Shown: positions 26,062 to 44,710 of the stretch, piece by piece
Layout of the letters: every line of letters starts with the position of its first letter
How positions within the stretch are numbered: the stretch's first letter is position 1
Source of the DNA: Corallococcus sp. EGB
GTDB taxonomy: Bacteria > Myxococcota > Myxococcia > Myxococcales > Myxococcaceae
DNA: 64,000 nucleotides
NCBI RefSeq assembly: GCF_019968905.1
Contig: NZ_CP079946.1
Coordinates: forward strand, 4,898,001 to 4,962,000
Direction of reading: 5' to 3'
Position numbers and translations under genes: made by a program
Notes under the pieces: generated by a model
Told to the model about the DNA's origin: nothing
The model's database searches: none
The model's input: only the letters and a program-made list of their open reading frames with translations

Positions 26062-26065
26062 CGCC

Positions 26066-26100
26066 CTCGCGGGTCCCAGGCCCGTGTCCCATCCCGCGAG
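26066..26100 (+). terminator. Candidate hairpin after the TPR/cNMP gene
   Basis: CTCGCGGG (26066-26073) and CCCGCGAG (26093-26100) are fully complementary with a 19-nt loop and begin 4 bp after the stop codon. There is no T-run. Its position separates the TPR/cNMP gene from the T6SS locus, suggesting separate transcripts. Confidence 0.4.
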
Positions 26101-26232
26101 TCACGCGCCGCCCCCGGACACGGGAGGCGTGGCCCGCCGGTCGGCCTCGCCCGGACGACCCGGCAGGCTCGCCGCGAAGCGGGGGAGGGCGTCATGTTGT
26201 GACACCGGAAAGCGCCCGCTATCCTGTACGGC

Positions 26233-27153
26233 ATGGCTGGAGGCCAGCACGCGACAGCGGGATTGGGGCCCGACGACATCGCCGAGCTGGAAGCCCTTGG
26301 CTCCGAGCCCGGCTATGACGTGTTCCTGGCCCCCGCGCGTGCCCTCGCAGGCCCCATGGAGGAGTGCCGCTCCAACATCGCGCTCGCCTTCCACAACACG
26401 AAGCGCGGGGTGGAGAGCGTCCTCGCCCGTGAAGCGGAAGTCGGCGCGCTCCCGGGCGTGAACCTGGAGGAGCTGCGCGACCTGCCACTGCTCGCCCAGG
26501 CCCTGGCCCACGCGGCGCTGCGCGTCCAGCGGGACATGCGGGCCAGCGCCTTTGGAGCCCTCTTCGACCGTGCGCAACAGCTGCGCCGCAAGCTGCTCAA
26601 GACGGCGGAGGCGCTCGCGGAGGCGTCCTTCCTCGCCCCCGCGGACGTGACGGCCGCCCACGGCGAGGGACACCGCGACGTGGTGGGGGACTGCCTGGGG
26701 CTCGTGGCGCTGTTCCGCAGGCACGAGGCGAAGCTCGCCGGCCGCTCCCCTGTCACGCCCGAGGACGTGGACGAGGTGGAGCGCGTGGCGCAGCAACTGC
26801 GCGCCCTGCTCGCGGCCCCGGGGGATGCCCGCGAGGACGCGAGCTCCCCGCTGCTCTTCGAAGCCACCGAGCTGCGCGACCGCTTCTGGACGCTGCTGAT
26901 CCGGCGCCACGATGTCCTCTGGCGCTGCGGCGCGTGGCTCTTCGGCCGGGACGTGGACATGCACGTGCCGCCGCTCCAGGCCCGCAACCCGCTGGTGCGC
27001 GCCGTGGAGCCCTCGTCCATTGAACGCGCGCCGCAACAGGCGATGCAGCAGAAGCGCGGCGCGACCCCGCTGCCGCCCCTCCCCACGGACAGCACCGTGC
27101 GCTCCAAGGTCCGCTTCATGGTGAAGGTCGGCTTCGACTTTCCCTCGCGGTAG
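26233..27153 (+). CDS. Unknown helical protein, first gene of the T6SS operon
   Basis: 306-residue soluble protein, predicted nearly all helical (for example LAQALAHAALRVQRDMRASAF, ELRDRFWTLLIRRHDVLWRC), with no signal peptide or recognised domain. The C-terminus (about 245-306) is rich in Pro, Gln and basic residues. It begins 171 bp after the preceding gene and ends 6 bp before the ANL-like gene, so it is very likely the first gene of the T6SS transcription unit. Position and helical content would allow a TssA-like or baseplate-accessory role, but no motif shows this, and I do not assign a function. Confidence 0.7.
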   Translation: MAGGQHATAGLGPDDIAELEALGSEPGYDVFLAPARALAGPMEECRSNIALAFHNTKRGVESVLAREAEVGALPGVNLEELRDLPLLAQALAHAALRVQRDMRASAFGALFDRAQQLRRKLLKTAEALAEASFLAPADVTAAHGEGHRDVVGDCLGLVALFRRHEAKLAGRSPVTPEDVDEVERVAQQLRALLAAPGDAREDASSPLLFEATELRDRFWTLLIRRHDVLWRCGAWLFGRDVDMHVPPLQARNPLVRAVEPSSIERAPQQAMQQKRGATPLPPLPTDSTVRSKVRFMVKVGFDFPSR

Positions 27154-27159
27154 ACACCC

Positions 27160-28875
27160 ATGCCTTTCGACGTGAAGGACATCCTCCGGCAGGTGGAAGC
27201 CGGGTTCGCTCCGGAGTCCGGAGCCCCGAGGTGGTGGCAGGAGAGCTGGGAGGATCCGGACGGGTTCGCCGTGGCGCTCGCGGAGGCCCACGCGGGCCGG
27301 GGCGTCCCGCCCCCCAAGAGCCGCCCTGGCCAGCAGTATGACTTCTTCCATGACCTGATGGTCCGCCACGTCTCGCTGGAGCGCCCCGCGTTCCGCACGC
27401 ACCAGCGCATCCAGGGCGCGCAGGCCCTGAGCTACCGCGCCCTGCACGACCTGGCCTCGCGCCGCGCCAGCGAGTGGGCGGATCAAGGCGTCGAACCGGG
27501 CGCCAGGGTGTGCCTGGTCCACGGAGTGGGGCAGGAGCTGCTCGTGTCGCTCCTGGCCACGCTGAAGCTGGGAGGCTGCTTCACGCTCCTGCCGCCCCTG
27601 GGCCCTCGCGCGATGGCCACACGGCTGGAGGCCCTGGCGCCGGACTTCATCGCCGCGGAGCCCCATCAACTCCCGCTCCTCAAGGGCCACGAGCAGCTCC
27701 TGCTCAAGGGCCAGGGCAGGGGAGCACCGGGCTTCACGTCGCACACGTACAAGCCCTCGGACGTCGTGGGGCTGCTCTTCTCGCCGCTGGTGGATCCGCC
27801 GCACACGCCGGTGCCCCTCACCGCGGAGAACGCGTGGAGGGGCGCCCTGAGCGACGGGCTGATCACCTTCGGCCTGTCGCCGGGGGACATCCTCGCGGCG
27901 CCGGACTTCCCGGTGCTCCAGCACCTGCCGGCGCTCCTCTTCGCCACGTTCCTGCGCGGCGCCACCTACCTGCACCTGGAGATGGCGGACCTGGCGCTCA
28001 ACCCGGCCCCGCTATTGGAGCACCCGCTGCGCGCCCTGGGTGTCACGCCGAAGCTGCGCGACCTGCTCCTCCGCCACCGCGCCTCCTTGCGCAACGTGCA
28101 GCACTGGTTCCGCAACCCGGAGGAGCCCTACGACGCCCAGGCGTGGCGCACGTGGGTGAAGCAGTGCGGCCTCCAGGCCGTGCAGTCCTCCAACATCCTC
28201 ATCGACGCGGCGGCCGGCGGCGCGGTGCTCATCTCGTCGCGCGGCGTGACGGAGCCGCACACGGACGTGCACACGGACGTCTTCCCCGTCCCGGGCCGCG
28301 CGTGGACGCTGAAGGATCCGAACCAGAGCGGGCAGGGCGCGCCCGCGGACGTGGGCGTCTTCACGCTGCTGCCGGACAAGGACTACGCGCCGGGCCACGT
28401 CCTGCTCGCGCGGATCCGCCAGCGCTACCACTACGGGGGCACGCTGGGCTTCCGGCGCGACGGCCACACCTACTCCGCGAAGGAGGTCACCGCCGCGCTG
28501 GAGGGCCTGCCGTTCCTCGCGGGAACCAGCGTGGTGCCGGTGTCCACCGGCGGCCTCGCCAGTCACTCCCGCTTCACCCTCCTGGCCTTCACGGGCGCCA
28601 CGCCTGCTCCCCCGTCCGGCGAGCAGGAGATCACCCGGCGCATCGAAATGCTCCTGGGCGGGGATTTCCTGCCCGATCGCATCGAGTTCTTTCCGCTCGT
28701 CCCACACAGGGTGAAGGGCGCGGTCGACGACGCGTGGTGCGCCTCGCAGTTCTTCACCGGCGCGCTGCACCGCAAGTCGAAGGACCCGATGTTCCAGGCC
28801 CTCACGGCCCTGCGGGGTCGGCTGTTGGAAAGCGCCGCGGCTTCGGGCGAAGATGGCCCGTCGCCAGCGCGCTGA
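27160..28875 (+). CDS. Degenerate AMP-binding (ANL superfamily) protein in the T6SS locus
   Basis: 571-residue protein with the fold signature of acyl-CoA synthetase/NRPS adenylation enzymes: FHDLMVRHVSLERPAF, ALSYRALHDLASRRASEWADQGVEPGARVCLV (core 1 equivalents), LLATLKLGGCFTLLPPLGP, and near the end HYGGTLGFRRDGHTYSAKEVTAAL, like the hinge/C-terminal domain. The ATP phosphate-binding loop normally reading TSGSTGxPK is replaced by LLFSPLVDPPHTPVPLTAEN (about 206-225), and the YGxTE motif is unrecognisable. It therefore probably does not adenylate and may be a structural or binding paralogue. It lies 6 bp after the first T6SS gene and 14 bp before the PAAR-like gene. An adaptor that loads cargo is one inference. 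Confidence 0.75.
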   Translation: MPFDVKDILRQVEAGFAPESGAPRWWQESWEDPDGFAVALAEAHAGRGVPPPKSRPGQQYDFFHDLMVRHVSLERPAFRTHQRIQGAQALSYRALHDLASRRASEWADQGVEPGARVCLVHGVGQELLVSLLATLKLGGCFTLLPPLGPRAMATRLEALAPDFIAAEPHQLPLLKGHEQLLLKGQGRGAPGFTSHTYKPSDVVGLLFSPLVDPPHTPVPLTAENAWRGALSDGLITFGLSPGDILAAPDFPVLQHLPALLFATFLRGATYLHLEMADLALNPAPLLEHPLRALGVTPKLRDLLLRHRASLRNVQHWFRNPEEPYDAQAWRTWVKQCGLQAVQSSNILIDAAAGGAVLISSRGVTEPHTDVHTDVFPVPGRAWTLKDPNQSGQGAPADVGVFTLLPDKDYAPGHVLLARIRQRYHYGGTLGFRRDGHTYSAKEVTAALEGLPFLAGTSVVPVSTGGLASHSRFTLLAFTGATPAPPSGEQEITRRIEMLLGGDFLPDRIEFFPLVPHRVKGAVDDAWCASQFFTGALHRKSKDPMFQALTALRGRLLESAAASGEDGPSPAR

Positions 28876-28889
28876 AAAAGGAGCGGCAC

Positions 28890-29276
28890 ATGGGTGCTCA
28901 GGTCGTGATGGGAGCGATGCTCCAATGCAGCTTCGGGGTGGCCCCATCGTCGCTGATGGTCCTGCCCGCGAACCGGGTGATGGCCACCACGCCCGCGGCC
29001 AACATCATGGACAACAAGCCGTTCATGAACATCCTGCCGTTCGGCATGTGCCAGTCCCTGGCCAACCCCATGGTCGCGGCGGCCACGGCGGCGGCCTTCG
29101 GCGTCCTCACCCCCATGCCCTGCATCCCCGCCACCGCGGCCCCCTGGATGCCCGGGTGCCCCAAGGTGCTGATCGGCAACATGCCGGCCCTGGAGAGCAA
29201 CTCCAAGTGCATGTGCAACTGGGGCGGCGTCATCCAGGTCGTCATGCCCGGACAGATGGTGGCCATCGATGGCTAG
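28890..29276 (+). CDS. DUF4280 PAAR-like spike-tip protein
   Basis: 128-residue protein of the DUF4280/PAAR-like class, which caps the VgrG spike of T6SS and may anchor effectors. It begins MGAQVVMGAMLQCSFGVAPS, has the family's repeated short strands (NKPFMNILPFGMCQSLANP, MPCIPATAAPW) and cysteines (LQCSFG, FGMCQS, MPCIPA, SKCMCNWGG) that may bind metal at the tip. The start has a strong GGAG (AAAAAGGAGCGGCAC) upstream. It overlaps the next gene by 8 nt. No effector domain is fused, so if it delivers a toxin it does so non-covalently. Confidence 0.85.
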   Translation: MGAQVVMGAMLQCSFGVAPSSLMVLPANRVMATTPAANIMDNKPFMNILPFGMCQSLANPMVAAATAAAFGVLTPMPCIPATAAPWMPGCPKVLIGNMPALESNSKCMCNWGGVIQVVMPGQMVAIDG

Positions 29277-30354
29277 CCCCGCGCTGGTGTTGGAGCCCGT
29301 CGACTTCGCGCTGCTCGACACGGAGTTCACCACCGCCCCCGTCTTCCTCGACGAGTCCGAGGGCCCGGATCCGCGCCTGGAGGCCATCACCGGCCTCGTC
29401 GCCCGGAGCGAGTACGCGGACGCCGCCCGCGCAGCCGCCGCGCTCCTGCGTGAGGGCGTGCGCGACGTGCGCATCGTGGGGCCCTACCTCTTCGGTCACT
29501 TCGCCGCGGACGGGATGAAGGCGCTGCCCTCCGTCTTCCGCTCGCTCAAGCGCACCCTGACGGAGAACTGGGACTTCTTCGGCCCGGTGGAGAAGAAGCT
29601 CGTCTTCGCGGACACCGGCCTGCGCTGGCTGCTGAAGATGATGGGCAAGCACCTGGAACACCATTCGCGCCTCAAGGACGCGCAATGGCAGACATGGAGC
29701 GCGCCCGGCAACCGCGAGCCCATGGAAGAGGCGCTGGCCATGGGCGACCCGCTCATCGCCGCCCTCGCCATCCTGCAGAAGAGCGCGTGCATGGACGCCA
29801 TGCGCACGCTGCTCGGCGCGCTGCGCGCCCACGCCCAGGCCGTACCCTTCCTGCCCCCGCCGGAGGAGCCCAAGCCCGCGGACGCCGCGCCGGAGCTCGC
29901 CGCCGCCCCGGACGACGACGAGGAGGACGACGAAGCAGGGGAGGAGGAAGAGGAGGTCCGCCCCGCGCGCGCGAAGGCGAAGAAGGCCGCCCACGCGGAA
30001 GCGCACGACGAAGGCCCGCGCGTGCCCATGTCGCCCGCGCTCGCGCAGCTGGTCCGCAAGCTGTCCGCCTTCGAGGCGCTGGTGGAGCGCGAGGACTACA
30101 CCAAGGCGAGCGTCATCGCCGTGGACGTGCTCGCCACCGTGGAGCGCTTCGACCCGCGCGTGTACCTGCCGCAGCTCTTCTCCGGCTTCTTCAATGGCCT
30201 GGCACAGCACGCGGAAGCCATCGAGCCCATGCTGCACAACACGGAGACGCTGTCCTTCCGCGCCATGGATCAGCTCTACCGCGTGGACCTGGACGCGTTC
30301 CTCGTGGCCCAGCAGCGCCAGCCGTCACGCGGCGGCTCGGAATACGACGAATAG
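29269..30354 (+). CDS. IglI/TssA-like T6SS protein
   Basis: 361-residue protein. The N-terminal ~150 residues are helical and resemble the ImpA-N/IglI-type T6SS proteins (RLEAITGLVARSEYADAARAAAALL, VRDVRIVGPYLFGHFAADG). A low-complexity, Glu/Asp/Lys-rich linker covers about 200-245. The C-terminal ~100 residues repeat the helical pattern (ALVEREDYTKASVIAVDVLATVERFDP). TssA-type proteins prime sheath assembly at the baseplate and IglI is its counterpart in Francisella-like systems; the locus has no canonical TssA, so this gene is the best candidate. Start overlaps the PAAR-like stop by 8 nt. The family call is by resemblance and operon position only. Confidence 0.6.
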   Translation: MASPALVLEPVDFALLDTEFTTAPVFLDESEGPDPRLEAITGLVARSEYADAARAAAALLREGVRDVRIVGPYLFGHFAADGMKALPSVFRSLKRTLTENWDFFGPVEKKLVFADTGLRWLLKMMGKHLEHHSRLKDAQWQTWSAPGNREPMEEALAMGDPLIAALAILQKSACMDAMRTLLGALRAHAQAVPFLPPPEEPKPADAAPELAAAPDDDEEDDEAGEEEEEVRPARAKAKKAAHAEAHDEGPRVPMSPALAQLVRKLSAFEALVEREDYTKASVIAVDVLATVERFDPRVYLPQLFSGFFNGLAQHAEAIEPMLHNTETLSFRAMDQLYRVDLDAFLVAQQRQPSRGGSEYDE

Positions 30355-30359
30355 CCCCC

Positions 30360-31256: not shown

Positions 31257-31274
31257 ACCTGTCATGTCCGCTGG

Positions 31275-31304
31275 TTGACGGGATTTCTTGATCGCGCCTA
31301 GGCT
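31275..31304 (+). promoter_or_regulatory. Possible sigma-70-type promoter upstream of tssB
   Basis: TTGACG (31275-31280) and TAGGCT (31299-31304) separated by 18 bp lie in the 135-bp gap between tssG and tssB, the largest gap inside the T6SS operon. The -35 matches the consensus in five of six positions and the -10 in three. A local promoter for the sheath/tube genes would fit the high demand for them. No start site is known. Confidence 0.35.
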
Positions 31305-31391
31305 GTAAATGTTCACTCGGCAGGGCGTACTCCCGGGGCGGCTCCAGCAGTACGGGGGGAAGAAGCGCACTGCGACTGTCAGGGAGTCACC

Positions 31392-32030
31392 GTGGCCATT
31401 CAGGACCAGCTTCCCAAATCCCGCATCACCCTTACGTACCGCACCACCATCAACGGCGAGCAGGAGACGGTGAACCTGCCGTTGCGCCTCCTGGTCATGG
31501 GCGACTTCTCGCTGAAGTCCTCCGAGGACCGCAAGCAGGACCTGGAGACGCGGAAGCTACGGTCCGTGGACGGCCGCAACCTCGACGAGTTGATGAAGGA
31601 CATGAAGATGTCCGCCAGCTTCGAGGTCCCCAACCGCATCAACCCGGACGTGGAGGCGGCGCTCAACGTCACGCTCCCCATCGACCGGATGAAGTCCTTC
31701 CACCCGGATGAGATCGTCAAGCACGTGCCGAAGCTCAAGGCGCTGCTGCTCCTGAAGACGCTCCTCGTGGAGATGCAGTCGAACATCGACAACCGCAAGG
31801 AACTGCGCCGCGAGCTCTACGACCTGTTCTCCAAGCCGGAGGCGCTCAAGGAGCTGCTCAACGAGCTCAAGGGCTACGAGACCATGCGTCTGCCCGCCGG
31901 TGAGGCCGCGAAGACGGAGGCGCCCGCCGGTGCCGCCGCCGCGGGCAAGCCGAGCGCGGGTGCCGCCGCCGCCACGGCCGCGGTCGCCGCCACCGTCGCC
32001 GCGGGCGCCAAGCCCCCGGCCGCTTCCTGA
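31392..32030 (+). CDS. tssB: T6SS sheath small subunit TssB (VipA)
   Basis: 212-residue TssB, which with TssC forms the contractile sheath. Characteristic segments are VNLPLRLLVMGDF, then FHPDEIVKHVPKLKALL and LRRELYDLFSKPEALKEL, the family's order. GTG start (31392) preceded by GGGAGTC. Residues 165-212 are an Ala/Gly-rich tail, longer than in most TssB (about 165 residues), probably flexible. It is followed 40 bp later by tssC, the invariant sheath gene pair. Confidence 0.93.
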   Translation: MAIQDQLPKSRITLTYRTTINGEQETVNLPLRLLVMGDFSLKSSEDRKQDLETRKLRSVDGRNLDELMKDMKMSASFEVPNRINPDVEAALNVTLPIDRMKSFHPDEIVKHVPKLKALLLLKTLLVEMQSNIDNRKELRRELYDLFSKPEALKELLNELKGYETMRLPAGEAAKTEAPAGAAAAGKPSAGAAAATAAVAATVAAGAKPPAAS

Positions 32031-32070
32031 TCCGCCTTCCCACACTTTCGACTTCTAAAAGGACTCCGCC

Positions 32071-33561
32071 ATGGCTGAGACCACCTACCTGAAGCGCCTG
32101 TTCACCAGCGTCCGGCTCGATCCGCCCCAGGAATCGGCGCCGATGATCACCACCAACTTCGCGCCCGCCGTCGACGAGCAGCAGGTCACCCTGGAGAGCC
32201 GCTTCCTCTCCAGCGTCGCCGCGCTGCTGCAGAACGTGGCCCCCGTCGAGGGCCCGGACAACGCCGCCCCCCGCTTCGACAAGGGCCAGGTGCTGGACGT
32301 CATCAGCCGCATCGATCGCATGATCGACGCGCAGATGAACGAGATCCTCCACAACGAGACCTTCCAGAAGCTGGAGTCCACGTGGCGCGGCCTGGAGGAC
32401 CTGGTCAACCACACCAACTTCAAGGCCAACATCGCCATCGACATCCTGGACGTCGGCAAGGATGAGCTGGCCGAGGACTTCGAGAACAACTCCAGCAACA
32501 TCTTCGCCGGAGCGCTGTTCGACAAGGTCTACATCCAGGAGTACGACCAGTACGGCGGCCGTCCCTTCGGCGCCATCGTGGGCCTGTACGACTTCTCCTC
32601 GTCGCCCGCGGACCTGACCTGGCTGCAGCGCATGGCGAAGATCTCCAACGCCGCGCACGCGCCGTTCATCTCCGCCGTGAACCACAAGTTCTTCGGCTGC
32701 GAGAGCATCGAGGAGATGGAGGCCATCAAGAACCTGGAGGGCGTGCTCGCCCACCCGCGGTTCGGCCGCTGGAACGCGTTCCGCGACACGGAGGAGGCCG
32801 CGTACGTCGGCCTGACCTTCCCGCGCTACGTGCTGCGCCTGCCCTGGCACCCGGACAAGAACCCCTGCGACGTCCTCAACTTCACCGAGACGGCCAGCGG
32901 CGACTCCGACAAGTACCTCTGGGGCAACTCCGCCATCCTGCTCGCGCGCAACATGGTGAAGGCGTTCGAGATCTCCGGCTGGTGCCAGTCCATCCGCGGC
33001 CCGAAGGGCGGCGGCCTCATCTCCGGCCTGCCGGTGGACACCTTCACCCTGCGCGGCCAGGAGGAGATCAAGGCCCCCGTGGAGATCGCCATCCCGGACT
33101 ACCGCGAGTACGAGTTCGCGAGGAGCGGCTTCATCCCGCTCGTGTACCGCAAGGGGTCCAGCGACGCGACGTTCTTCAGCACCCAGTCCGCCAAGGTCGC
33201 CAAGACCTTCAAGGACCCCAAGGACTCGGAGAACTCACAGCTCGTCACCAACCTGGCCTACACGTTCTCCATCACGCGGCTGGCGCACTACGTGAAGTGC
33301 ATCATGCGCGACAACATCGGCAACACGGCGGACGCGCCCTACATCCAGCGGCAGCTGGACTCGTGGCTGTCCAACTACGTCACGACCGTGGCCAACCCGG
33401 ACGACCTCACCGTGCGCCGCTTCCCGTTCAAGGCGAGCAGCGTGACCGTCTTCCCGCGCCCCGGTGAGATCGGCTGGTACGACTGCAAGCTGGCCGTGCT
33501 CCCGCACATCCAGTTCGAAGGCCTCAACGTGGAGCTGATGCTCGAGTCGCGGCTCGGTTGA
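32071..33561 (+). CDS. tssC: T6SS sheath large subunit TssC (VipB)
   Basis: 496-residue TssC of normal length. It carries the family's recognisable core: ESTWRGLEDLVNHT, DKVYIQEYDQYGGRPFGAIVG, WNAFRDTEEAAYVGLTFPRYV, LPWHPDKNP and YLWGNSAILLA, and ends HIQFEGLNVELMLESRLG, typical of the C-terminus. TssB and TssC strands interweave into the contractile sheath that drives the Hcp tube outward. AAGGA lies before the ATG. A hairpin follows the stop, ahead of the tube gene. Confidence 0.97.
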   Translation: MAETTYLKRLFTSVRLDPPQESAPMITTNFAPAVDEQQVTLESRFLSSVAALLQNVAPVEGPDNAAPRFDKGQVLDVISRIDRMIDAQMNEILHNETFQKLESTWRGLEDLVNHTNFKANIAIDILDVGKDELAEDFENNSSNIFAGALFDKVYIQEYDQYGGRPFGAIVGLYDFSSSPADLTWLQRMAKISNAAHAPFISAVNHKFFGCESIEEMEAIKNLEGVLAHPRFGRWNAFRDTEEAAYVGLTFPRYVLRLPWHPDKNPCDVLNFTETASGDSDKYLWGNSAILLARNMVKAFEISGWCQSIRGPKGGGLISGLPVDTFTLRGQEEIKAPVEIAIPDYREYEFARSGFIPLVYRKGSSDATFFSTQSAKVAKTFKDPKDSENSQLVTNLAYTFSITRLAHYVKCIMRDNIGNTADAPYIQRQLDSWLSNYVTTVANPDDLTVRRFPFKASSVTVFPRPGEIGWYDCKLAVLPHIQFEGLNVELMLESRLG

Positions 33562-34286: not shown

Positions 34287-35537
34287 ATGCAGCGGTACAA
34301 GCTCGCACGGGTCCGCTGGCACGTAGGCCAGACGCTTCTTCCGGAGCATTTCGTCGCGCAGGAGGACGCGCTGGACGCGGAGATCCGCCTCCATGCCACC
34401 CTGTCCGGCCTGCCGTCCTACGGCGTCGCGAACCTGGCCTGGAACGAGTCGCTCCTGCAGAGCGGCAGCCTGTCCATCTCCGCGCTCACCGTCGTCACCA
34501 AGTCCGGGGACCTGCTGGACGTCCCGGGCAACTCCGTCATCTCGCCGCTGTCGCTTGAAGCCGTCGGCAAGACGGAGTTCATCGTCTACCTGCACGTGCT
34601 GAAGGAGACCGTCAGCGCGGAGGGCATCCGCCTGTACGCGGATGATCCGCCGGTGCTCCAGCGCGTGCTGCACAAGCTGCAGCTGTCCACGGAGCCGGTG
34701 CTGGATGGCACCGTCGCCTCCATGGGCCTGGCCGCCGTGTCCCAGGACGAGGACGGCGCGTGGCACACGTCCCCGGACTGGGTGCCCGCGCTGATGCTCG
34801 TGGGGCCCAACCCCTTCCTGGAGCGGCTGCTCACCACCCTGGATGACCTGCTGGATCAGGTCCGCCAGCAGCTGCTCACCAACATCTCCGACACGTACCT
34901 GCGCACGGACCGGCTCACCAACGCGCGCCGGGCGCTCTTTGAAGTGCACCGTCTCATCGCGATGCGCCGGGACATGTTCCGGCAGGTGTACGTGCACCCG
35001 TACCACCTGTTCGACGCGCTTCGCCGGCTGTACTTCGAGGCGTGCTGCTACCTGGAGATGCTCCCGGACGAGCAGATGCCGGTGTACCAGCACGAGCAGC
35101 TCAACGAGTCGCTGGGAGGGTGGATCCGCCTGCTCACGCGCAACTTCCAGCCGGAGGCCACGCGCTCCACGCACAAGGCCTTCCAGGCGAAGGAAGGGCA
35201 GTTCCAGATGTCGCCGCTGCCGCCGGAGATCCGCTCCGCGAGCGAGGCGTACCTGCTGGTGCAGCGCACCAACCCCGGGGAGCGCACGCCGCTGGAGGGC
35301 GTGAAGCTGGCCAGCCCGTCCCGGTTGCCGCTGGTGCGCCGCCAGGCCCTGAAGGGCGTGCCGTTCAAGCACGTGCCATATCCGTCGTTCCCGCATGCGC
35401 TGGGGCCGGAGATTGACTGGTACCTGCTCAGCCAGGGCGAGGAGTGGCAGCACGCGCTGCGCGAGGACGGCCTGGCCTTCTACGTGACGCCGGCGCTGCG
35501 GGGCGCCCAGACGTCGCTGTTCTGGCGGAGGAGCTAG
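34287..35537 (+). CDS. tssK: T6SS baseplate-membrane connector TssK
   Basis: 416-residue TssK. The N-terminal family pattern is visible as RVRWHVGQTLLPEHFVAQEDALDAE, followed by strand-rich shell-like sequence (LSISALTVVTKSGDLLDV, EFIVYLHVLK). The middle helical part is LLTTLDDLLDQVRQQLL and a C-terminal head follows. TssK trimers link the baseplate to the TssJLM membrane complex, and the fold is shared with siphophage receptor-binding proteins. Start ATG with GGAAAG about 11 nt upstream. It lies after the tube-gene terminator, so its expression may depend on read-through or another promoter. tssE starts 5 bp after its stop. Confidence 0.9.
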   Translation: MQRYKLARVRWHVGQTLLPEHFVAQEDALDAEIRLHATLSGLPSYGVANLAWNESLLQSGSLSISALTVVTKSGDLLDVPGNSVISPLSLEAVGKTEFIVYLHVLKETVSAEGIRLYADDPPVLQRVLHKLQLSTEPVLDGTVASMGLAAVSQDEDGAWHTSPDWVPALMLVGPNPFLERLLTTLDDLLDQVRQQLLTNISDTYLRTDRLTNARRALFEVHRLIAMRRDMFRQVYVHPYHLFDALRRLYFEACCYLEMLPDEQMPVYQHEQLNESLGGWIRLLTRNFQPEATRSTHKAFQAKEGQFQMSPLPPEIRSASEAYLLVQRTNPGERTPLEGVKLASPSRLPLVRRQALKGVPFKHVPYPSFPHALGPEIDWYLLSQGEEWQHALREDGLAFYVTPALRGAQTSLFWRRS

Positions 35538-35542
35538 ACGCC

Positions 35543-35932
35543 ATGGGGCGCGCACCGTTCCTGGACAAGTTCGCGGCCCGAGCGGAGCGCACCAACACGC
35601 GCGACAGCCTGGAGCACGTGATGCGTAACATCGAAGCCGTGCTCAACACGAAGAAGGGCTACGGCTTCTTCATGCACGACTTCGGGCTCGGCGGGTACAC
35701 GGAGAAGCTGGGCACGCGCGAGCTGGTGGAGTCGCTCACCGCTGAGATCCAGGACGAGGTCACCCGGCATGAACCCCGGCTGGTGGATCCGGAGGTGAAG
35801 CTGCGCGGCCGCGACAGCGCGCTCTGGCTCCACTTTGACTGCAAGGGCACCTTCGACGGGCAGCCCTGCCACCTGTCGCTGATGTTCCACGCCACCACCG
35901 GCCGGGTGCGCGTCCAGGCGGAGGACACCTGA
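35543..35932 (+). CDS. tssE: T6SS baseplate protein TssE (gp25-like)
   Basis: 129-residue TssE, related to the phage T4 gp25 wedge protein. Features match: HVMRNIEAVLNTKKGYGFFMHDFGLGGYT near the N-terminus, then EIQDEVTRHEPRLVDPEVKL and a terminal domain with strands ALWLHFDCKG and SLMFHATTGRVRVQAED. The first ATG after the tssK stop gives the normal length; upstream codons belong to the tssK frame. It links the baseplate wedge to the sheath. Its stop overlaps the start of the VgrG-like gene by 1 nt. Confidence 0.9.
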   Translation: MGRAPFLDKFAARAERTNTRDSLEHVMRNIEAVLNTKKGYGFFMHDFGLGGYTEKLGTRELVESLTAEIQDEVTRHEPRLVDPEVKLRGRDSALWLHFDCKGTFDGQPCHLSLMFHATTGRVRVQAEDT

Positions 35933-37627: not shown

Positions 37628-38230
37628 ATGGGCACGCTGGTTTGCAAGATCGAACTGGACAAGGAGAAGGGCATCACCGTCCAGGTCGACAACGCGGATG
37701 ATCAGATCACGCAGACCCTCGTGATGAACGGCACCAGCATCACCATCACGGTGAAGGGCCAGCAGGAGACGAGCACCATCGTCCAGAAGCAGGACAGCAT
37801 CGTCGTCACGGTGAAGGACCTCACCTTCGACACCGACACCCTCACGATGAAGTCCAAGGGCGTGTCCAAGTGGACCAGCCAGGACACGCTCACGGTGGAG
37901 AGCACCAAGGACATGACGCTCAAGACGAGCGCCAAGCTCACGCAGACGGCCACCAGCGACGCGAAGCTGTCCTCCAGCGCGAACGTGAACATCGAGGCCA
38001 CGTCCAAGCTGGCCATGAAGGGCAACATGGGCGCGGAGATGGTCACCTCCGGCGGCGAGGCGAAGGTGGACGGCGTGACGCTGAAGCTCGCCGGCAAGTC
38101 GCAGGCGGAGATGTCCGGCGCGATGACCAAGGTATCGGGCACCGGGAAGCTCGACCTGGAGAGCTCCGGCATGGCGAACCTCAAGGGCTCCATCACCAGC
38201 GTGGGCGGCGCCCTGGTGAAGCTGGGCTGA
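37628..38230 (+). CDS. Separately encoded beta-helix (VgrG needle-like) protein
   Basis: 200-residue protein made almost wholly of short alternating Thr/Ser/Lys/Val strands, for example NGTSITITVKGQQETSTIVQ, DTLTMKSKGVSKWTSQDTLT and TKDMTLKTSAKLTQTATSDA, the repeat style of the triple-stranded beta-helix at the C-terminus of VgrG and gp5. The C-terminal part is Gly/Ser-rich. It lies 13 bp after a VgrG head gene that lacks this domain, so it very likely trimerises and continues the spike. No catalytic residues or effector domain can be seen. It could itself be the contact for a cargo or tip protein. Confidence 0.7.
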   Translation: MGTLVCKIELDKEKGITVQVDNADDQITQTLVMNGTSITITVKGQQETSTIVQKQDSIVVTVKDLTFDTDTLTMKSKGVSKWTSQDTLTVESTKDMTLKTSAKLTQTATSDAKLSSSANVNIEATSKLAMKGNMGAEMVTSGGEAKVDGVTLKLAGKSQAEMSGAMTKVSGTGKLDLESSGMANLKGSITSVGGALVKLG

Positions 38231-38277
38231 AGACCGACTCACATGGCGACAATCGACGTACGGCGGGAGAGCGGGCG

Positions 38278-39924
38278 GTGAAGGACTTCTCGGAGAAGAT
38301 CTACCTGGACTTCCTGGCGGAGCTGGACGGGCTGGAGCGCTTTCGTCAGCGCTTCCAGGAGCGGCACCCGGCGGCCCCGTTGGACCGCGAGGACCCGGAC
38401 GTGCGCCGCCTCATCGAGGCGATGGCGTTCTTCTCCGTGCAGACGCGGCACGCCACGCTGCACAACCTGCGCTCCACCTGGCGCCGGCTGTTCGCGGGCT
38501 TCTTCGACTTCCTCCTGGAGCCCGTGCCCGCCGCCGCCATGGCGCAGGCCGTGCCCTCGGACAAGATGGCGGAGCCGGTGCTCCTCACCCGGGGCACGGA
38601 GCTGCGCCTGACGCCCGCGGAGGGCGTGGCGGGCTCCTTCCGCCTCCAGCGCGACCTGCGCGTGCTGCCCATCTCCCTGAAGGGCACGGACGTGGTGCCG
38701 CAGGTGAGGAGCGGCCACCGGCTCATCATGCGCTTCGAGTCCCGCTTCCCGCGCAAGGACGCCATCGACGTGCTCAGCCTGCACGTGCGGCACCTGGACG
38801 ACTACCGCTCGTCGCTGGCCGTGTTCCACGCGCTGCGCAAGCACCTGAAGCAGGTGAGCGTCGTCTATGACGAAGAGGCGGACGAGCACTCCGTGGGCAG
38901 CCCCTGCGAGGTCTCCTTCAACCGCGACCCGCCCGCGCCCGACGACAGCGGCCTCTACTCGCACCCGTTCCAGCGCCTGCGCGCGTTCTTCCAGTTCCCG
39001 GAGCAGCAGCTCTTCGTGCACGTGAAGGTGCCGCCGCAGCGCAACAGCTCCTGGATGCGGTTCAGCCTCTGCCTGGACCTGGACAAGGATTGGAACGTCG
39101 GGCGCTCGCTGCACCCGGACTTCTTCCAGCTGTTCACCGTGCCGGTGGTGAACCTCAAGGCGGAGCCCGCGCAGGTCATCGTGGCGGACGGCACGCGCGC
39201 GGAGCACCCCATCCTCAGCATGAGCGCGGGGCGCGAGTTCAGCCTGCACTCGGTGACGGGCGTCTACGAGATGACCAAGGCGGGGCTCGCGCCGCTGCGG
39301 CCCGCGTTCCTGCCCGGCAAGGGGCCCAGCTACGAGGTGGACGAGACCTTCGACGAGAAGCTCGCCTCGCGGCAGAGCCTCATTGTCCGCATGCCGGAGG
39401 CGTTCACCGCGCCCCGGAAGATCGTGCTGGAGGCGCTGTGGCACCAGCCGCAGTTCTCCGCGCAGGCGGCGGGCAGGGTGAAGGTGTCCATCCCGGGCCG
39501 TCACATCGAGGGCCTGGGTTGGCAGACGGTGGGCAGCCTCCAGCCCCACCGCGACAGCGTGCTACGGGATGATGTCGAAGCGCTGACGCAATTCCTCGCG
39601 TGGAAGGCGAAGCCCACGCTGGGACGTGACGAGGTGGTCGCCCTGCTGGGTCACCTGGGGACCCCGGCGGAGAGCCCGTTCCGCCGCGTCCTTCCGTGGC
39701 TCAAGGAGTTGAAGTTCAGTGTCGTCCCCGACAGCGCGCTCAAGGGCTCGGGGATCCGCCACGCCTACGAGGCCGTGATGGAGCCCTTCGATCAGAGTTT
39801 CGAGCCTGTCGTCATCTGCTTTCTTGAGCAGCTGAGGGACCTGCTTGATGCTTGGAACAACGAGGCGACCGTTGATCTCAAGGCCTCGGTAGCGGGGTTG
39901 GGGCCGCTACAGCTCCCAACATAG
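38278..39924 (+). CDS. tssF: T6SS baseplate protein TssF
   Basis: 548-residue TssF, the large baseplate wedge subunit. The family pattern is visible: IYLDFLAELDGLERFRQRF near the N-terminus, RRLIEAMAFFSVQTRHATLH, then LLTRGTELRLTPAEG and FHPDFFQLF-type strands around 280-300. The start is GTG at 38278, with GGGAG about 10 nt upstream. A 12-codon frame from the ATG at 38243 has its stop overlapping this GTG (GTGA), so coupling through a short leader is possible. Length fits other TssF. TssF, TssG and TssE form the wedge around the spike. Confidence 0.85.
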   Translation: MKDFSEKIYLDFLAELDGLERFRQRFQERHPAAPLDREDPDVRRLIEAMAFFSVQTRHATLHNLRSTWRRLFAGFFDFLLEPVPAAAMAQAVPSDKMAEPVLLTRGTELRLTPAEGVAGSFRLQRDLRVLPISLKGTDVVPQVRSGHRLIMRFESRFPRKDAIDVLSLHVRHLDDYRSSLAVFHALRKHLKQVSVVYDEEADEHSVGSPCEVSFNRDPPAPDDSGLYSHPFQRLRAFFQFPEQQLFVHVKVPPQRNSSWMRFSLCLDLDKDWNVGRSLHPDFFQLFTVPVVNLKAEPAQVIVADGTRAEHPILSMSAGREFSLHSVTGVYEMTKAGLAPLRPAFLPGKGPSYEVDETFDEKLASRQSLIVRMPEAFTAPRKIVLEALWHQPQFSAQAAGRVKVSIPGRHIEGLGWQTVGSLQPHRDSVLRDDVEALTQFLAWKAKPTLGRDEVVALLGHLGTPAESPFRRVLPWLKELKFSVVPDSALKGSGIRHAYEAVMEPFDQSFEPVVICFLEQLRDLLDAWNNEATVDLKASVAGLGPLQLPT

Positions 39925-39936
39925 ACAAACACGTTC

Positions 39937-40578
39937 ATGAAACTGGAGCATTGGAACACACTCCTGGCCACGCAGCGGCGCGTGCGCCAGCTCCTGGACC
40001 GGACCCTGCCCGCCGAGCCCGCCGCGGGCGCGCGCCGGCCGCAGAGCAGGGTGGGGCAGGAGGCCCTGGGCCACCTGGAGCAGGCGCTGATCGTCGAGCA
40101 GGAGCGCCTGCGCGCCGCGTTCGGCGCGGACATGACGCCCGACGAGGTGGAGGAGCTGATCCGCCCCTTCGTGTACCTCCTGGACGAGTGGGTGCTCCGG
40201 CGGCTCGCGGACGCGGAGCAACATCTCTGGCCGCTCCTGCAGCAGAACCTGTTCAAGGTCGACTCCGGCGGAGATCTCTTCTACGAGCTCGTGGAAGAGA
40301 AGTTGCGTCGCAACGACACCCCGCCCATCGTCTTCGAGATGATCCGCTTCTGCCTCGCCGCGGGCTTCACCGGACGCCTCGTGGGGCAGCCCGAGCGCAT
40401 CCGCGACGTGACGAATCGCATCTCCCAGCGCATCCCGCAGCCGGCGTCCGTCCCGCTGCCCGCGCCCGTGCTGCCGCCGGCGGTGCCCACCGTCTACGAC
40501 TTCCCGATGCACTACTACGTCGCGACAGCCCTCATCGTCCTGGGGCTTCCGGTCTTCTTGTGGTGGGTCTCCAATTGA
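39937..40578 (+). CDS. tssL: T6SS membrane-complex protein TssL (DotU)
   Basis: 213-residue inner-membrane protein of the TssL/DotU family. The cytoplasmic domain has the family motifs VEELIRPFVYLLDEWVLRRL, LLQQNLFKVDSGGDLFYELV and FCLAAGFTGRLVGQPERI, the last two being the conserved acidic/glycine patch. A single hydrophobic helix lies at the C-terminus (YVATALIVLGLPVFLWWVSN). There is no OmpA-like or peptidoglycan-binding extension. It forms the membrane complex with TssM and TssJ. The gene order tssL-(small)-tssM is nearly contiguous. Confidence 0.9.
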   Translation: MKLEHWNTLLATQRRVRQLLDRTLPAEPAAGARRPQSRVGQEALGHLEQALIVEQERLRAAFGADMTPDEVEELIRPFVYLLDEWVLRRLADAEQHLWPLLQQNLFKVDSGGDLFYELVEEKLRRNDTPPIVFEMIRFCLAAGFTGRLVGQPERIRDVTNRISQRIPQPASVPLPAPVLPPAVPTVYDFPMHYYVATALIVLGLPVFLWWVSN

Positions 40579-40894: not shown

Positions 40895-43800
40895 GTGGGC
40901 GCGCTTCAGTCCATCCTGGCGGCATTGCAGGCCCACTGGGTGCTCGTGCTGGGCATCGGCGTGGTGCTCGCGGCCATTGGCGTGGGCGTGGCGCTGTGGT
41001 GGCGCAGGCGCAAGGGCGGCGGCCCGGCGCTCACGGGCGGGCAGAAGCCGCTGGCGTCGGGGCAGCTGCTGGCCATCCGCAAGAAGTTCCTGGCGAAGCT
41101 GCCGTGGCGCTTCCGCGCGTCCGTGCGGGACTTCCCCACGCTGGTGGTGATGGGGCCGGCGGGCAACGGCAAGTCGGACCTCATCAAGTCGGAGGTGGAC
41201 TGGGAGCGGCAGCAGCGCCAGTTCATGCCCAGCCACACGGACGACCCGCTCCTCAACATCTTCCTGGGGCCCGAGGTCGTCGTGCAGGAGCTGGCCTCGC
41301 CCGTGCTGGAGGACGACTCGCTCCACGCGCGGCGCGCGCTGCGCCGGCTGTGGAAGGCCACCTTCGGGCGCCGGCACGTGGGCCGGGCCGTCATCGTCCT
41401 GCAGGCGAAGTGGCTGCTGGAGACCTCGCCGGACGAGCAGAAGCGCGTCACCCAGCTCCTGCGCGGCAAGGTGAACCTGCTGTCGGAGGTGTGCCAGGCG
41501 CCCGTGGAGACGAGGCTGGTCCTCACGCGCATGGACGCGCTGGAGGGCTACGCGGACTTCGCGGAGCTCTTGCGCAAGCACGGCGTTCCCCTGGAGCTGG
41601 AGGTGCCGCCGCCCGGCAGGGAAGGGGAGCTGGCGGACGCGCTCCATCCCATGGAGAAGTACCTGGCGCTGGGGCTCACGTCGCTGACGCAGGACGCGTT
41701 CGAGCGGCTCGCGAACTTCTACTCGCGCGGCGGCGACGCGTTCGCGGCGCTGGGGCGCTTCGTCTCCACGCTGATGGAGGGCGGCTCGCTGACGTACCCG
41801 CTGCGCCTCCAGCGCGTCTACCTGTCGGCGGGAGGCCCGAAGGCCGAGCCCACGGGGGCGCTGGCGGTGCACGCGGATCAGCCTGCGGCGCTGCTCGCCA
41901 GGGACTACCGCTGGACGCACCTGCGCCGGTGCGCGGTCATCCTCGCGGTGGGGTGCCTGCCGGTGCTGCTGGCGTACGCGCACTTCTACCAGCTGATCCT
42001 TCGCACGCGAGACAAGCTGGACGCGTTCCAGGTGACGGTGCAGCGGCTGGAGGAGCGGAACCAGAGCGTGTCCGGCTCCGTGGTGGAGTCCCAGACGAAC
42101 GACGCGGTGCGGGCGATGGAGGACCTCTGGCACGCCACGCGCTTCTGGCCGCCGCTGGCCCACAGCTTCACGGATGAGCGGGAGGAGCTGCGGGCCCGGC
42201 TCGCGCGCAGCATCCGGATGTCCTACCTGAAGCCGATGCTGGAGAGGTGCCAGGCCCAGTGCCGGCGCTGCCCGGGCCAGATTCCCGGCTGCCAGCCCGC
42301 GCCCGTGTTCACCGGCCGCGCCACCCGCGCCGCGCCGCTGACCCCGGCGCCCGCGGTGGACGACAGCTGCCACCTGGAGACGCTCTGCCGGCCGGAGCAG
42401 ACGCTCTACACGCTGGGCGTGCTGTACAGCTCTCGCAACGAGGACCTGGGCCAGTTCGTGCTGCGCAGCGTGCACGGGGCGTACAGGAAGCAGCTGAGCT
42501 GGACGGCGGAGGCCTACGGGTTGAGCCTGGCGGGCGCGGAGCCGGAGAAGAACTGGCTGGACGCCATGGGCCTGGCGGATCCGATGGTCGCCAACTACGT
42601 CATCGCCAGCGACAAGCCCTTCGACGAGGACGTCCCCTGGACGCGGTGGCCCTACGCGTACCTGACGATGGACGGCCTGCTGGGCCCGTGGCGCGAGCAC
42701 TTCATGCGGTTGCAGGACGTGCTGGGCGCGAAGGAGCTGGAGCTGGCCCGGTGGGCCGCGTTGGCGGACGAGCGTGAGCGCCTGCGCACCTCGCTCGCGG
42801 AGAGCGCGCCGTACAACTCCGCGCGCAAGGTGATGGACCTCATCAACGCCTCGGACGCGGAGCCGGACGCCAGCCAGTTGAAGGGGGTGGGCCACCTGCT
42901 GGACTCGCTGGACTGGCTGCGCCAGAACCGCCAGACGCTGGAGGCCATCCTGCGCATGGAGGACGAGGCGGACGCCGCCCTGCGCGCCGCCGCCCGCATG
43001 ACGCCCGCGGAGCTGCTCACCCGCGCGGACGGCCTCTTCGCCCCCAGCGACGGCGACGCGCGCTACCAGGTGGAGGTCCTCCGGCGTGACTTCGAGTTCC
43101 GCCCCATGGACGTGTCCCGGCAGCTCCTGGACAAGGTGCTGCGCACGTTGAAGGAGACGGGCCGCACGCCGTTCAACGCCGATTCGTTCAACCCCCGCAC
43201 GGGCGAGACGACGTCAGAGGTGGCCAACGAAGGGGTGGGGGACGACGACACGGAGTTCGCCAGCGGGCAGGCCCCGGTGGTGGGCCGCGTGCTGGGCAAG
43301 GCCGCCTTCGACGCGCAGCTGGCCCCGCTGGTGGACGAGTTCACCACGCGGCTGGCCAAGTCCAGCCTGTCGCGCGAGGAGGCGGTGGAGCGCGCCACCT
43401 TCGTACAGGGAAAGGTGCAGGACTTCGCGAAGCGCTACGGCAAGGATCTCTTCGCGACCTACCGTGGCTACCGCTTCCGCACGACGCCTCGGGGCTCGCT
43501 GGCCAGCGACCTGTCCGTGCTGCTGCAGCCATCGTCGCCGCTGGAGGCGATGCTGCGCGACGTGGCGAGCCGCGCCGGCGTGGGCCCGCTGGAGAGCGAG
43601 TACTACGCGCCCATGCGCGACGCGGTGGCGCCCTTCAAGCCGGTGGTGCAGCTGATGCAGCCGGACAAGAACGGCGCGTTCGCGGAGCTGGCGGCCTACA
43701 CCACGCTGGTGTCGCAGCTGCAGCAGGAGCTGTCCGGGGTGAAGCCCGCGGCGGCGCCCAAGGACGCGGCGGCGCCCGGCGCGGCAGGGGCCACGGCTTC

Positions 43801-44710
43801 GTCGGCGGGCTCGCAGCTGGCGGAGATGCTGTCGCCGGTGGGGCGGGTGGCGCTGAGCATGCTGCTGGAGGAGGAGGACTCGTACCTGCGCAGGGTGGAC
43901 GCGTGGCTGGATCAGCACGGCCTGGTGGGCGAGTTCCGGGCGCCGTTCCGCCAGCCCTTCATCGTCGTGCGCAACCGGGGCCGCGCGGAACTGGAGCGCG
44001 TCATCGCGGAGCAGTGGGCCTACCAGGCTCGCCGCACGCTGGACCCGCTGGTGAAGCGCTACCCGTTCAACCCCAGCGCGTCGCAGGAAGTGGATCCGGT
44101 GGAGCTGGAGGTCCTGCGCCGCAAGGACGGGGCCTTCTGGGCCTTCGTCACGCAGGTGCTGTCGCCGGTGGTGGAGGAGCGCGGGGCGGACTGGTCGCTG
44201 CGCTATCCGCTGAAGTCCCGGCTGCTGCTGCCGCCGCGCATGCTCACCTCGCTGGGGCAGCTGGGCCGCCTGTCGAAGCTCTTGTGGGATGACGAGGGCA
44301 AGGCGCGCCCCATCGCGATGCAGGTGCGTCCGCTGCCGCTGCCGACGGCGCCCACGCCAGACAGCTTCGTGACGCTGTCGTACCTGAAGTGCGGCGGGGC
44401 CGCGTCGTTCGGGTTCAACCAGCGGCCCGCGTGGGGAGACTTCCCCCTGAACTGGTGGAGCCCACAGCCGTCGTCCATCGGCGTGGAGCTGCGGTCGCCG
44501 TCGAAGGATGGAAAGCGCTACCGCTCCATGGAGATGTCCGAGTCGTCGTGGAACTGCTTCCGCCTGCTGGAGTCCGCGACGCTGACGGACCAGTCCAACG
44601 TGGTGTGGGTGCTGCCGGGGCGCGGGCTGGCGGCGAACGAGAAGGTGCTGGAGATCAGCTTCGGGTTGCGCGGCGAGCCTTGGGCGCCATTCCGTGGGGT
44701 GGTGCCATGA
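40895..44710 (+). CDS. tssM: T6SS membrane-complex protein TssM (IcmF)
   Basis: 1271-residue TssM, normal for the family. Two N-proximal features: a membrane helix at about 15-36 and a nucleotide-binding Walker A GPAGNGKS at 87-94. A second membrane helix lies around 345-365 (CAVILAVGCLPVLLAYAHFY), preceded by the cytoplasmic domain. The long periplasmic part to the end contains Cys-containing segment CQAQCRRCPG at about 450-460, which is unusual, and a C-terminal TssJ-binding domain. GTG start 2 bp after the small gene. Together with TssL and TssJ it spans the envelope and anchors the baseplate. Confidence 0.93.
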   Translation: MGALQSILAALQAHWVLVLGIGVVLAAIGVGVALWWRRRKGGGPALTGGQKPLASGQLLAIRKKFLAKLPWRFRASVRDFPTLVVMGPAGNGKSDLIKSEVDWERQQRQFMPSHTDDPLLNIFLGPEVVVQELASPVLEDDSLHARRALRRLWKATFGRRHVGRAVIVLQAKWLLETSPDEQKRVTQLLRGKVNLLSEVCQAPVETRLVLTRMDALEGYADFAELLRKHGVPLELEVPPPGREGELADALHPMEKYLALGLTSLTQDAFERLANFYSRGGDAFAALGRFVSTLMEGGSLTYPLRLQRVYLSAGGPKAEPTGALAVHADQPAALLARDYRWTHLRRCAVILAVGCLPVLLAYAHFYQLILRTRDKLDAFQVTVQRLEERNQSVSGSVVESQTNDAVRAMEDLWHATRFWPPLAHSFTDEREELRARLARSIRMSYLKPMLERCQAQCRRCPGQIPGCQPAPVFTGRATRAAPLTPAPAVDDSCHLETLCRPEQTLYTLGVLYSSRNEDLGQFVLRSVHGAYRKQLSWTAEAYGLSLAGAEPEKNWLDAMGLADPMVANYVIASDKPFDEDVPWTRWPYAYLTMDGLLGPWREHFMRLQDVLGAKELELARWAALADERERLRTSLAESAPYNSARKVMDLINASDAEPDASQLKGVGHLLDSLDWLRQNRQTLEAILRMEDEADAALRAAARMTPAELLTRADGLFAPSDGDARYQVEVLRRDFEFRPMDVSRQLLDKVLRTLKETGRTPFNADSFNPRTGETTSEVANEGVGDDDTEFASGQAPVVGRVLGKAAFDAQLAPLVDEFTTRLAKSSLSREEAVERATFVQGKVQDFAKRYGKDLFATYRGYRFRTTPRGSLASDLSVLLQPSSPLEAMLRDVASRAGVGPLESEYYAPMRDAVAPFKPVVQLMQPDKNGAFAELAAYTTLVSQLQQELSGVKPAAAPKDAAAPGAAGATASSAGSQLAEMLSPVGRVALSMLLEEEDSYLRRVDAWLDQHGLVGEFRAPFRQPFIVVRNRGRAELERVIAEQWAYQARRTLDPLVKRYPFNPSASQEVDPVELEVLRRKDGAFWAFVTQVLSPVVEERGADWSLRYPLKSRLLLPPRMLTSLGQLGRLSKLLWDDEGKARPIAMQVRPLPLPTAPTPDSFVTLSYLKCGGAASFGFNQRPAWGDFPLNWWSPQPSSIGVELRSPSKDGKRYRSMEMSESSWNCFRLLESATLTDQSNVVWVLPGRGLAANEKVLEISFGLRGEPWAPFRGVVP

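What the first reader, a model, noticed from the sequence alone, without database searches (positions are those of the whole stretch)
27160..28875. AMP-binding pseudoenzyme built into the T6SS locus
The fold is ANL (adenylating enzyme), but the P-loop TSGSTGxPK is replaced by sequence with no glycine-rich loop (about 206-225) and the YGxTE motif is lost. It sits between the first operon gene and the PAAR-like tip, and is not a known T6SS core component. A catalytically dead adenylation protein may act as an adaptor binding an acyl, adenylate or peptide ligand, or load the tip.
Basis: partly seen in the sequence, partly recalled or inferred. Interest (0 to 1): 0.7.

Follow-up and report, generated by a model that had tools for sequence, protein, structure and literature searches.

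The report
Dead adenylating enzyme at T6SS tip
A protein with the shape of an acid-activating enzyme, but with its catalytic motifs worn away, is kept as a fixed partner of the tip gene in a Francisella-like type VI secretion system of predatory soil bacteria, probably as a structural or loading part of the weapon.

Summary
Window 27160-28875 (571 aa, Corallococcus) has an ANL fold by sequence, profile and predicted structure. The ATP-binding and catalytic motifs are gone in the whole family: P-loop 0 of 28, YGxTE 0 of 28, A10 lysine 1 of 28. The former A7, A8 and A10 sites are now less conserved than average, yet the gene is under purifying selection.

It is not a stray insertion. Among 195 Myxococcota genomes it occurs in 52, against 53 with the IglI T6SS protein; 52 are shared. 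A DUF4280 (PAAR-like) gene follows it directly in 63 of 66 places. In trees it seems to have moved between two T6SS classes.

IglI, DUF4280 tip and this gene just upstream resemble Francisella iglF-iglG. There the two proteins bind each other and both are needed for sheath assembly. Best reading: an IglF-like, non-catalytic tip partner needed to start T6SS assembly. Binding, secretion and homology to IglF are untested; the DUF4280 here lacks IglG's N-terminal extension, which IglF binding needs.

The parts
27160..28875 (+). ANL-fold pseudoenzyme (571 aa), the object of the finding
27310..27372 (+). residues 51-71, family signature PKSRPGQQYDFFHD and neighbours, among the most conserved stretches and in front of the ANL core
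27775..27834 (+). residues 206-225: former A3 P-loop site, now LFSPLVDPPHTPVPLTAENA; F207 S208 P209 invariant in A1 (28 rows)
28192..28245 (+). residues 345-362: aligned with the A5 (YGxTE) region of real enzymes; motif absent, G353 G354 invariant
28693..28731 (+). residues 512-524: former A10 site (PLVPHRVKGAVDD); catalytic Lys position is Ala here and Lys in only 1 of 28 rows
28890..29276 (+). PAAR-like tip protein, DUF4280 (128 aa), four invariant Cys (13, 54, 78, 109), no N-terminal extension
29269..30354 (+). IglI-family T6SS protein (NF041244, 267 bits, cut-off 100)
26233..27153 (+). first gene of the run (306 aa, helical, no family); found in 18 of 50 loci, not part of the conserved pair
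31392..32030 (+). T6SS sheath small subunit (VipA/TssB)
32071..33561 (+). T6SS sheath large subunit (VipB/TssC)
34287..35537 (+). TssK baseplate protein
35444..35932 (+). TssE (gp25-like)
37870..39924 (+). TssF
39937..40578 (+). DotU/TssL
40895..44710 (+). IcmF/TssM

Best explanation
A former acid-adenylating (ANL) enzyme has lost ATP binding and catalysis and has become a fixed protein partner of the DUF4280 tip in an IglI-type (Francisella-like) T6SS. It most likely binds the DUF4280/spike complex in the cytoplasm, as IglF binds IglG in Francisella, and is needed for efficient start of baseplate and sheath assembly. Whether it stays behind or leaves with the tip is open. Shown here: fold (predicted), motif loss, purifying selection, one-to-one presence with IglI loci, constant pairing with DUF4280, a tree that fits movement between two T6SS classes. 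Inferred: loss of activity, physical binding to DUF4280, role in assembly, correspondence to IglF.
For: ANL fold. Motif loss in 28 of 28 (P-loop, YGxTE) and 27 of 28 (A10 Lys); former A7, A8 and A10 sites 1.27, 1.21 and 1.33 bits of column entropy against a mean of 1.14, with the most conserved stretches elsewhere (51-71, 225-279). dN/dS 0.22-0.36 against six relatives, close to IglI (0.28-0.37) and above DUF4280 (0.19). Distribution: 52 of 195 genomes with the gene, 53 with IglI, 52 shared. Pairing: 63 of 66 places followed by DUF4280 within 1 kb on the same strand, and 63 of 68 DUF4280 places lie behind such a gene. The pairing holds in class-2 loci (10 of 12) where the gene sits beside tssF, in 11 of 12 on the opposite strand to it, and in a distant family (L038, 29% identity). 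Published for Francisella (passages read): iglF lies directly upstream of iglG, IglF and IglG bind (two-hybrid and co-IP, PMC5014421), and iglF and iglG deletions give the same shortage of sheaths, about 1 per 400 and 500 cells (PMC5481754).
Against: IglG binds IglF through an N-terminal helical extension, and a PAAR-like protein without it did not bind (PMC5014421); the DUF4280 here has no such extension. Two of 65 whole genes (L039, L040) have no DUF4280 next to them. In L038 the DUF4280 is 80% identical to the window's while this gene is only 29% identical, so the contact surface cannot be strongly conserved on this side. Distances correlate less well with DUF4280 (0.55) than with IglI (0.86). 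Homology to IglF was not tested. The small DUF4280 tree does not show that both genes moved together. AlphaFold confidence is modest (pLDDT 66), with residues 373-438 poorly modelled.
Confidence: 0.6

Rival explanations
1. It is cargo: a protein carried out on the DUF4280 tip and delivered into target cells, where its ANL-like pocket binds or sequesters a metabolite.
For: Position beside the tip gene, as for many tip-borne effectors (general knowledge); IglF was reported secreted in some Francisella assays and is called a putative effector (PMC5014421; PMC5924787).
Against: Present in every whole IglI locus seen and evolving at about the rate of IglI, whereas cargo usually varies between strains (general knowledge). 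In Francisella, loss of iglF nearly stops assembly, while loss of pdpC and pdpD, proposed effectors, does not (PMC5481754).
Confidence: 0.2
2. It is an adaptor or chaperone that loads variable effectors onto the DUF4280 tip, like DUF4123, DUF2169 or DUF1795 proteins at other tips.
For: Location directly in front of the tip gene; different genes stand upstream of it in different lineages.
Against: The upstream genes are not recognisable toxins: no family for the 306-aa gene, only a weak oxidoreductase match, none, or unrelated housekeeping and signalling families for the six others scanned. Adaptors are normally optional and effector-specific (general knowledge), whereas this gene is universal in its T6SS class.
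Confidence: 0.12
3. It keeps a ligand pocket and works as a sensor: binding of an acyl, aminoacyl or CoA compound licenses T6SS assembly.
For: The whole ANL fold including the C-terminal domain is kept; stretches 225-279 in the core are strongly conserved.
Against: The ATP-binding loop is gone and the A5 site altered; no direct evidence of a ligand. Conservation may serve folding or protein contacts.
Confidence: 0.06
4. It is still an active adenylating enzyme with an unusual nucleotide site.
For: ANL fold.
Against: P-loop, YGxTE and A10 lysine are absent together, and former catalytic sites vary freely.
Confidence: 0.02

Closest known systems
Francisella IglF (T6SS-ii, partner of PAAR-like IglG)
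   Same: Gene directly upstream of a DUF4280 tip gene; T6SS with an IglI-family protein; similar size (67.9 kDa given for IglF in PMC5924787; 571 aa here).
   Different: IglF binds through an IglG N-terminal extension that is missing here. No published fold for IglF was found in the searches made. Sequence or fold homology was not tested.
ANL superfamily enzymes (acetyl-CoA synthetase, EntE, NRPS adenylation domains)
   Same: Fold and full-length profile alignment.
   Different: A3 P-loop, A5 YGxTE and A10 lysine lost; catalytic sites no longer conserved; sits in a T6SS run of genes.
T6SS tip adaptors with DUF4123 (Tap/TEC), DUF2169 or DUF1795 (EagR) (families recalled; listed in papers, listing only)
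   Same: Gene beside the tip gene; proposed protein partner of the tip.
   Different: No match to these families in Pfam at E up to 1; different fold; universal in its class rather than tied to one effector.

Membership tests
ANL superfamily (homologue) | ANL fold, N- and C-terminal domains | tested here: met
   Foldseek E 4.6e-20, VIA Z 28.4 (core mostly), hhalign 519 columns including the A10 end
ANL superfamily (working enzyme) | A3 P-loop for ATP | tested here: not met
   0 of 28 in A1 and 0 of 29 in A2; controls 11 of 11, chosen by that motif
ANL superfamily (working enzyme) | A5 YGxTE | tested here: not met
   0 of 28 and 0 of 29; controls 9 of 11
ANL superfamily (working enzyme) | A10 catalytic lysine | tested here: not met
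   1 of 28 and 1 of 29; Ala in the window protein; controls 11 of 11
IglF-type partner of a PAAR-like tip | gene directly upstream of a DUF4280 gene | tested here: met
   28890-29276 is DUF4280; 63 of 66 places in the phylum
IglF-type partner of a PAAR-like tip | T6SS with an IglI-family protein | tested here: met
   NF041244, 267 bits; 52 of 53 genomes shared
IglF-type partner of a PAAR-like tip | tip protein carries the N-terminal extension that binds IglF | tested here: not met
   DUF4280 domain covers residues 5-122 of 128, so there is no extension
IglF-type partner of a PAAR-like tip | sequence or fold homology to IglF | not tested
IglF-type partner of a PAAR-like tip | physical binding to the tip; needed for sheath assembly | not testable with these tools
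   Published for Francisella only
DUF4123 / DUF2169 / DUF1795 tip adaptors | the adaptor domain | tested here: not met
   no such Pfam match at E up to 1

The most novel reading that the evidence does not exclude
A dead acyl-adenylating enzyme has been taken over as an essential assembly part of a whole branch of type VI secretion systems, and Francisella IglF, whose fold and job are open, is a far-diverged member of the same ANL pseudoenzyme family.
Probability: 0.4. Interest if true: 0.8.

Novelty: new variant of a known kind. Interest (0 to 1): 0.58.

Why it matters
No paper linking an ANL-fold protein with a T6SS tip was found in the searches made. If right, a metabolic enzyme fold was exapted as a part of a contractile weapon, and a group of soil bacteria offers a model for the IglF-IglG step, whose mechanism is unresolved in the papers read. 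It also gives a simple marker for this T6SS class: IglI, DUF4280 and the ANL pseudoenzyme together.

Tried and rejected
Rejected: the 221-aa ORF 28853-29518 as the PAAR-like gene (no Pfam or NCBIfam match; the true gene is in another frame). Rejected: a chance or decaying gene (dN/dS 0.22-0.36, 52 genomes). Led nowhere: plasmid searches with the window protein, its L038 relative and IglI (no match); viral contigs (no relative); reaching phyla beyond Myxococcota (the single genome-contig scan returned records of Myxococcaceae and close relatives only, and another search centre was not accepted). So distribution outside Myxococcota is unknown. The DUF4280 tree (28 rows, 128 columns) is too weakly resolved to prove joint transfer with the ANL gene (class 2 was one group in 6% of bootstrap trees). 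Identity-matrix correlations gave 0.55 for ANL with DUF4280 and 0.86 for ANL with IglI, that is, the pair with the tip gene is the weaker one; this speaks against simple pairwise coevolution with the tip. The model of the 306-aa gene is weak (pLDDT 62, pTM 0.44) and was not searched further. VIA-align rows mainly span residues 32-473, so the C-terminal domain rests and one profile match. Rows dropped before counts: in the 41-locus matrix, L016, L017, L020, L021, L035 and L056 were left out as cut, broken or incomplete, and loci without all three genes fell out; the trees used 30 (ANL) and 29 (IglI) chosen loci; one search used 28 (DUF4280) and 13 (VipB). In one search the two pieces of the frame-broken G061 gene were counted as one place, and a C-terminal fragment (G085:C260) was kept as a miss. 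Loci L058-L085 repeat genomes already among L009-L057 and were left out of the count of 50.

Full report
What is there. The window lies in a Corallococcus-type genome (Corallococcus records 82-91% identical over this protein; own genome 9.43 Mb). The ORF 27160-28875 encodes 571 aa. The run of genes is: a 306-aa gene (26233-27153), the ANL gene, a 128-aa DUF4280 gene (28890-29276), an IglI-family gene (29269-30354), then sheath, TssK, TssE, TssF, DotU and IcmF genes. Gaps are 6 and 14 bases and the DUF4280 and IglI genes overlap by 8 bases, so co-transcription is likely (inference; the sigma-70 scan found no promoter-like or terminator-like site in 25800-32100, which means little in this organism).

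Is it an ANL protein? Yes. Pfam sees only residues 75-166 (30.9 bits, cut-off 29.9), but a family profile finds adenylating enzymes among solved structures (best E 1.8e-13). hhalign against 11 real adenylation domains of the same genome aligns 519 columns (Prob 98.3, E 2.3e-14). The predicted structure (pLDDT 66, pTM 0.68) matches acetyl-CoA synthetase (Foldseek E 4.6e-20) and adenylation domains (Z 28.4).

Is it dead? By sequence, yes. The alignment places the P-loop at residues 206-220, where the family has an invariant FSP and no glycine-rich loop. P-loop 0 of 28, YGxTE 0 of 28, A10 lysine 1 of 28; controls 11, 9 and 11 of 11 (the first circular, since the controls were chosen by it). A looser G[ST]G pattern occurs somewhere in 2 of 28, a TGD-like triplet somewhere in 3 of 28, and a loose A8-like pattern in 19 of 28; these are unanchored, and the aligned A3 and A7 sites printed do not hold them. 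The former A7, A8 and A10 places are more variable than the average column (1.27, 1.21, 1.33 against 1.14 bits). The most conserved stretches are residues 51-71, with the signature PKSRPGQQYDFFHD, and 225-279. Motif loss together with a dN/dS of 0.22-0.36 means the protein is kept for something else. No activity was measured.

How widespread and how tightly linked? In all 195 held genomes of the phylum, 52 have the gene, 53 have IglI and 54 have DUF4280. The 52 have all three. IglI without the gene: G139 only, a fragment at a contig end in an 86% complete genome. DUF4280 without it: G141 and G188. Of 66 gene places (one a fragment), 63 have DUF4280 within 1 kb downstream on the same strand; of 68 DUF4280 places, 63 lie behind such a gene. 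Among the 50 loci read in detail, 48 have the pair; L039 and L040 do not, and no DUF4280-like ORF was seen just downstream there. G187 (locus L038), from another family of the phylum, keeps the same order ANL, DUF4280, IglI, sheath genes, with the ANL protein at 29% identity and the DUF4280 protein at 80%.

Two T6SS classes. Twelve of the detailed loci (L039-L041, L046-L052, L054, L057) carry a second class of this T6SS in which the gene sits beside tssF, in 11 of 12 on the strand opposite to tssF (L040 is on the same strand). IglI splits the two classes by a long branch (1.23 changes per column) and VipB also splits them (0.42 + 0.37), with L038 on the class-2 side in both (with a long-branch warning for IglI). 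In the ANL tree class 2 is instead a shallow group (87/94) next to L043 and L044 inside class 1 (the joint group 100/100; branches of 0.04-0.14) (rooted at the midpoint, L038 being a very long branch). Against the window, L041 and L046 have 57% and 54% identity in the ANL protein and 29% and 33% in IglI. The simplest reading is that the gene was passed from one class to the other, so it works with machines whose other parts differ a great deal. The DUF4280 tree is too poorly resolved to say that both moved together, and the ANL-DUF4280 distance correlation (0.55) is lower than ANL-IglI (0.86).

How it probably works. In Francisella, iglF lies between vgrG and iglG; IglF binds the PAAR-like DUF4280 protein IglG in two-hybrid and co-IP tests (PMC5014421, passages). 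Deletion of either leaves about one sheath per 400-500 cells, and the authors propose a role in initiation (PMC5481754, passages). The review lists IglF as a possible tip-associated effector, and secretion reports conflict (PMC5924787, passages; PMC5349215, passage). The gene here has IglF's place, partner type and T6SS class. I therefore propose a non-catalytic tip partner that helps start assembly. Not shown: any binding, any phenotype, and homology to IglF. A point against a literal copy of the mechanism is that IglG needs an N-terminal extension to bind IglF and the DUF4280 protein here has none. The ANL protein has its own conserved N-terminal segment before the ANL core (residues 20-70), which might do the docking instead (speculation). 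The DUF4280 protein keeps four invariant cysteines (13, 54, 78, 109; 10 sequences), in line with the metal-binding cysteines described for the family.

Known or new? The M. xanthus DK1622 T6SS in the literature is one cluster, MXAN_4800-4813, with tagF, tssJ and vgrG1 (PMC5801462 and PMC6627406, passages); no AMP-binding gene appeared in the passages read. Searches for T6SS with AMP-binding, AMP-dependent synthetase, acyl-CoA synthetase, adenylation domain or ANL terms, and for IglF with AlphaFold or acyl-CoA terms, gave no paper describing such a component (listings only, best rows shown; the library holds open-licence papers only). No NCBIfam model reaches its cut-off for the window protein, and the family-wide matches shown are generic ligase models. 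Hence 'new variant of a known kind': a T6SS tip partner of known position, with an unexpected fold.

Limits. Only Myxococcota could be searched in depth. The structure model is moderate. All functional steps are inference.

Noticed in passing
window 29269-30354 and relatives: IglI-family proteins show weak similarity to ImpA_N (TssA): 10 of 19 members, best E 1.4e-4, window member E 0.039, below the Pfam cut-off. The TssA slot of the Francisella system is listed as unknown (PMC5924787), so IglI may be its TssA.
   Followed up: partly
own genome G000: No VgrG above the TIGR03361 cut-off; only two partial matches (C1:4189717 and C1:3590676), both outside the T6SS locus. The spike of this T6SS may be as divergent as in Francisella.
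   Followed up: no
window 26233-27153: The 306-aa first gene has no family and occurs in 18 of 50 loci read (L001, L009-L025); predicted mostly helical, low confidence.
   Followed up: partly
L046, L047, L057, L041, L043, L044, L040, L077: A protein of about 340-490 aa with a hydrophobic start and a shared LPGFELERLELN-like stretch lies next to the ANL gene or close by in several other lineages (seen by eye); the L041 and L047 copies have no Pfam match.
   Followed up: no
L053:11927-13969 and L071:7768-9978: A 680-736 aa gene upstream of the ANL gene with a weak Pyr_redox_2 match (E 0.003 and 0.0016), a possible lineage-specific cargo.
   Followed up: no
L056 (G061): The ANL gene is broken into two overlapping frames; sequencing error or a real frameshift cannot be told apart.
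   Followed up: no
G188:C81:4865-5215, G141:C111:548-898, G065:C1:7776205-7776561: DUF4280 domains without an ANL gene in front; the first two genomes also lack IglI, so they may belong to another contractile system.
   Followed up: no
L038: The DUF4280 protein is 80% identical to the window's across families while its ANL and IglI neighbours are 25-29% identical: an unusually conserved tip.
   Followed up: no
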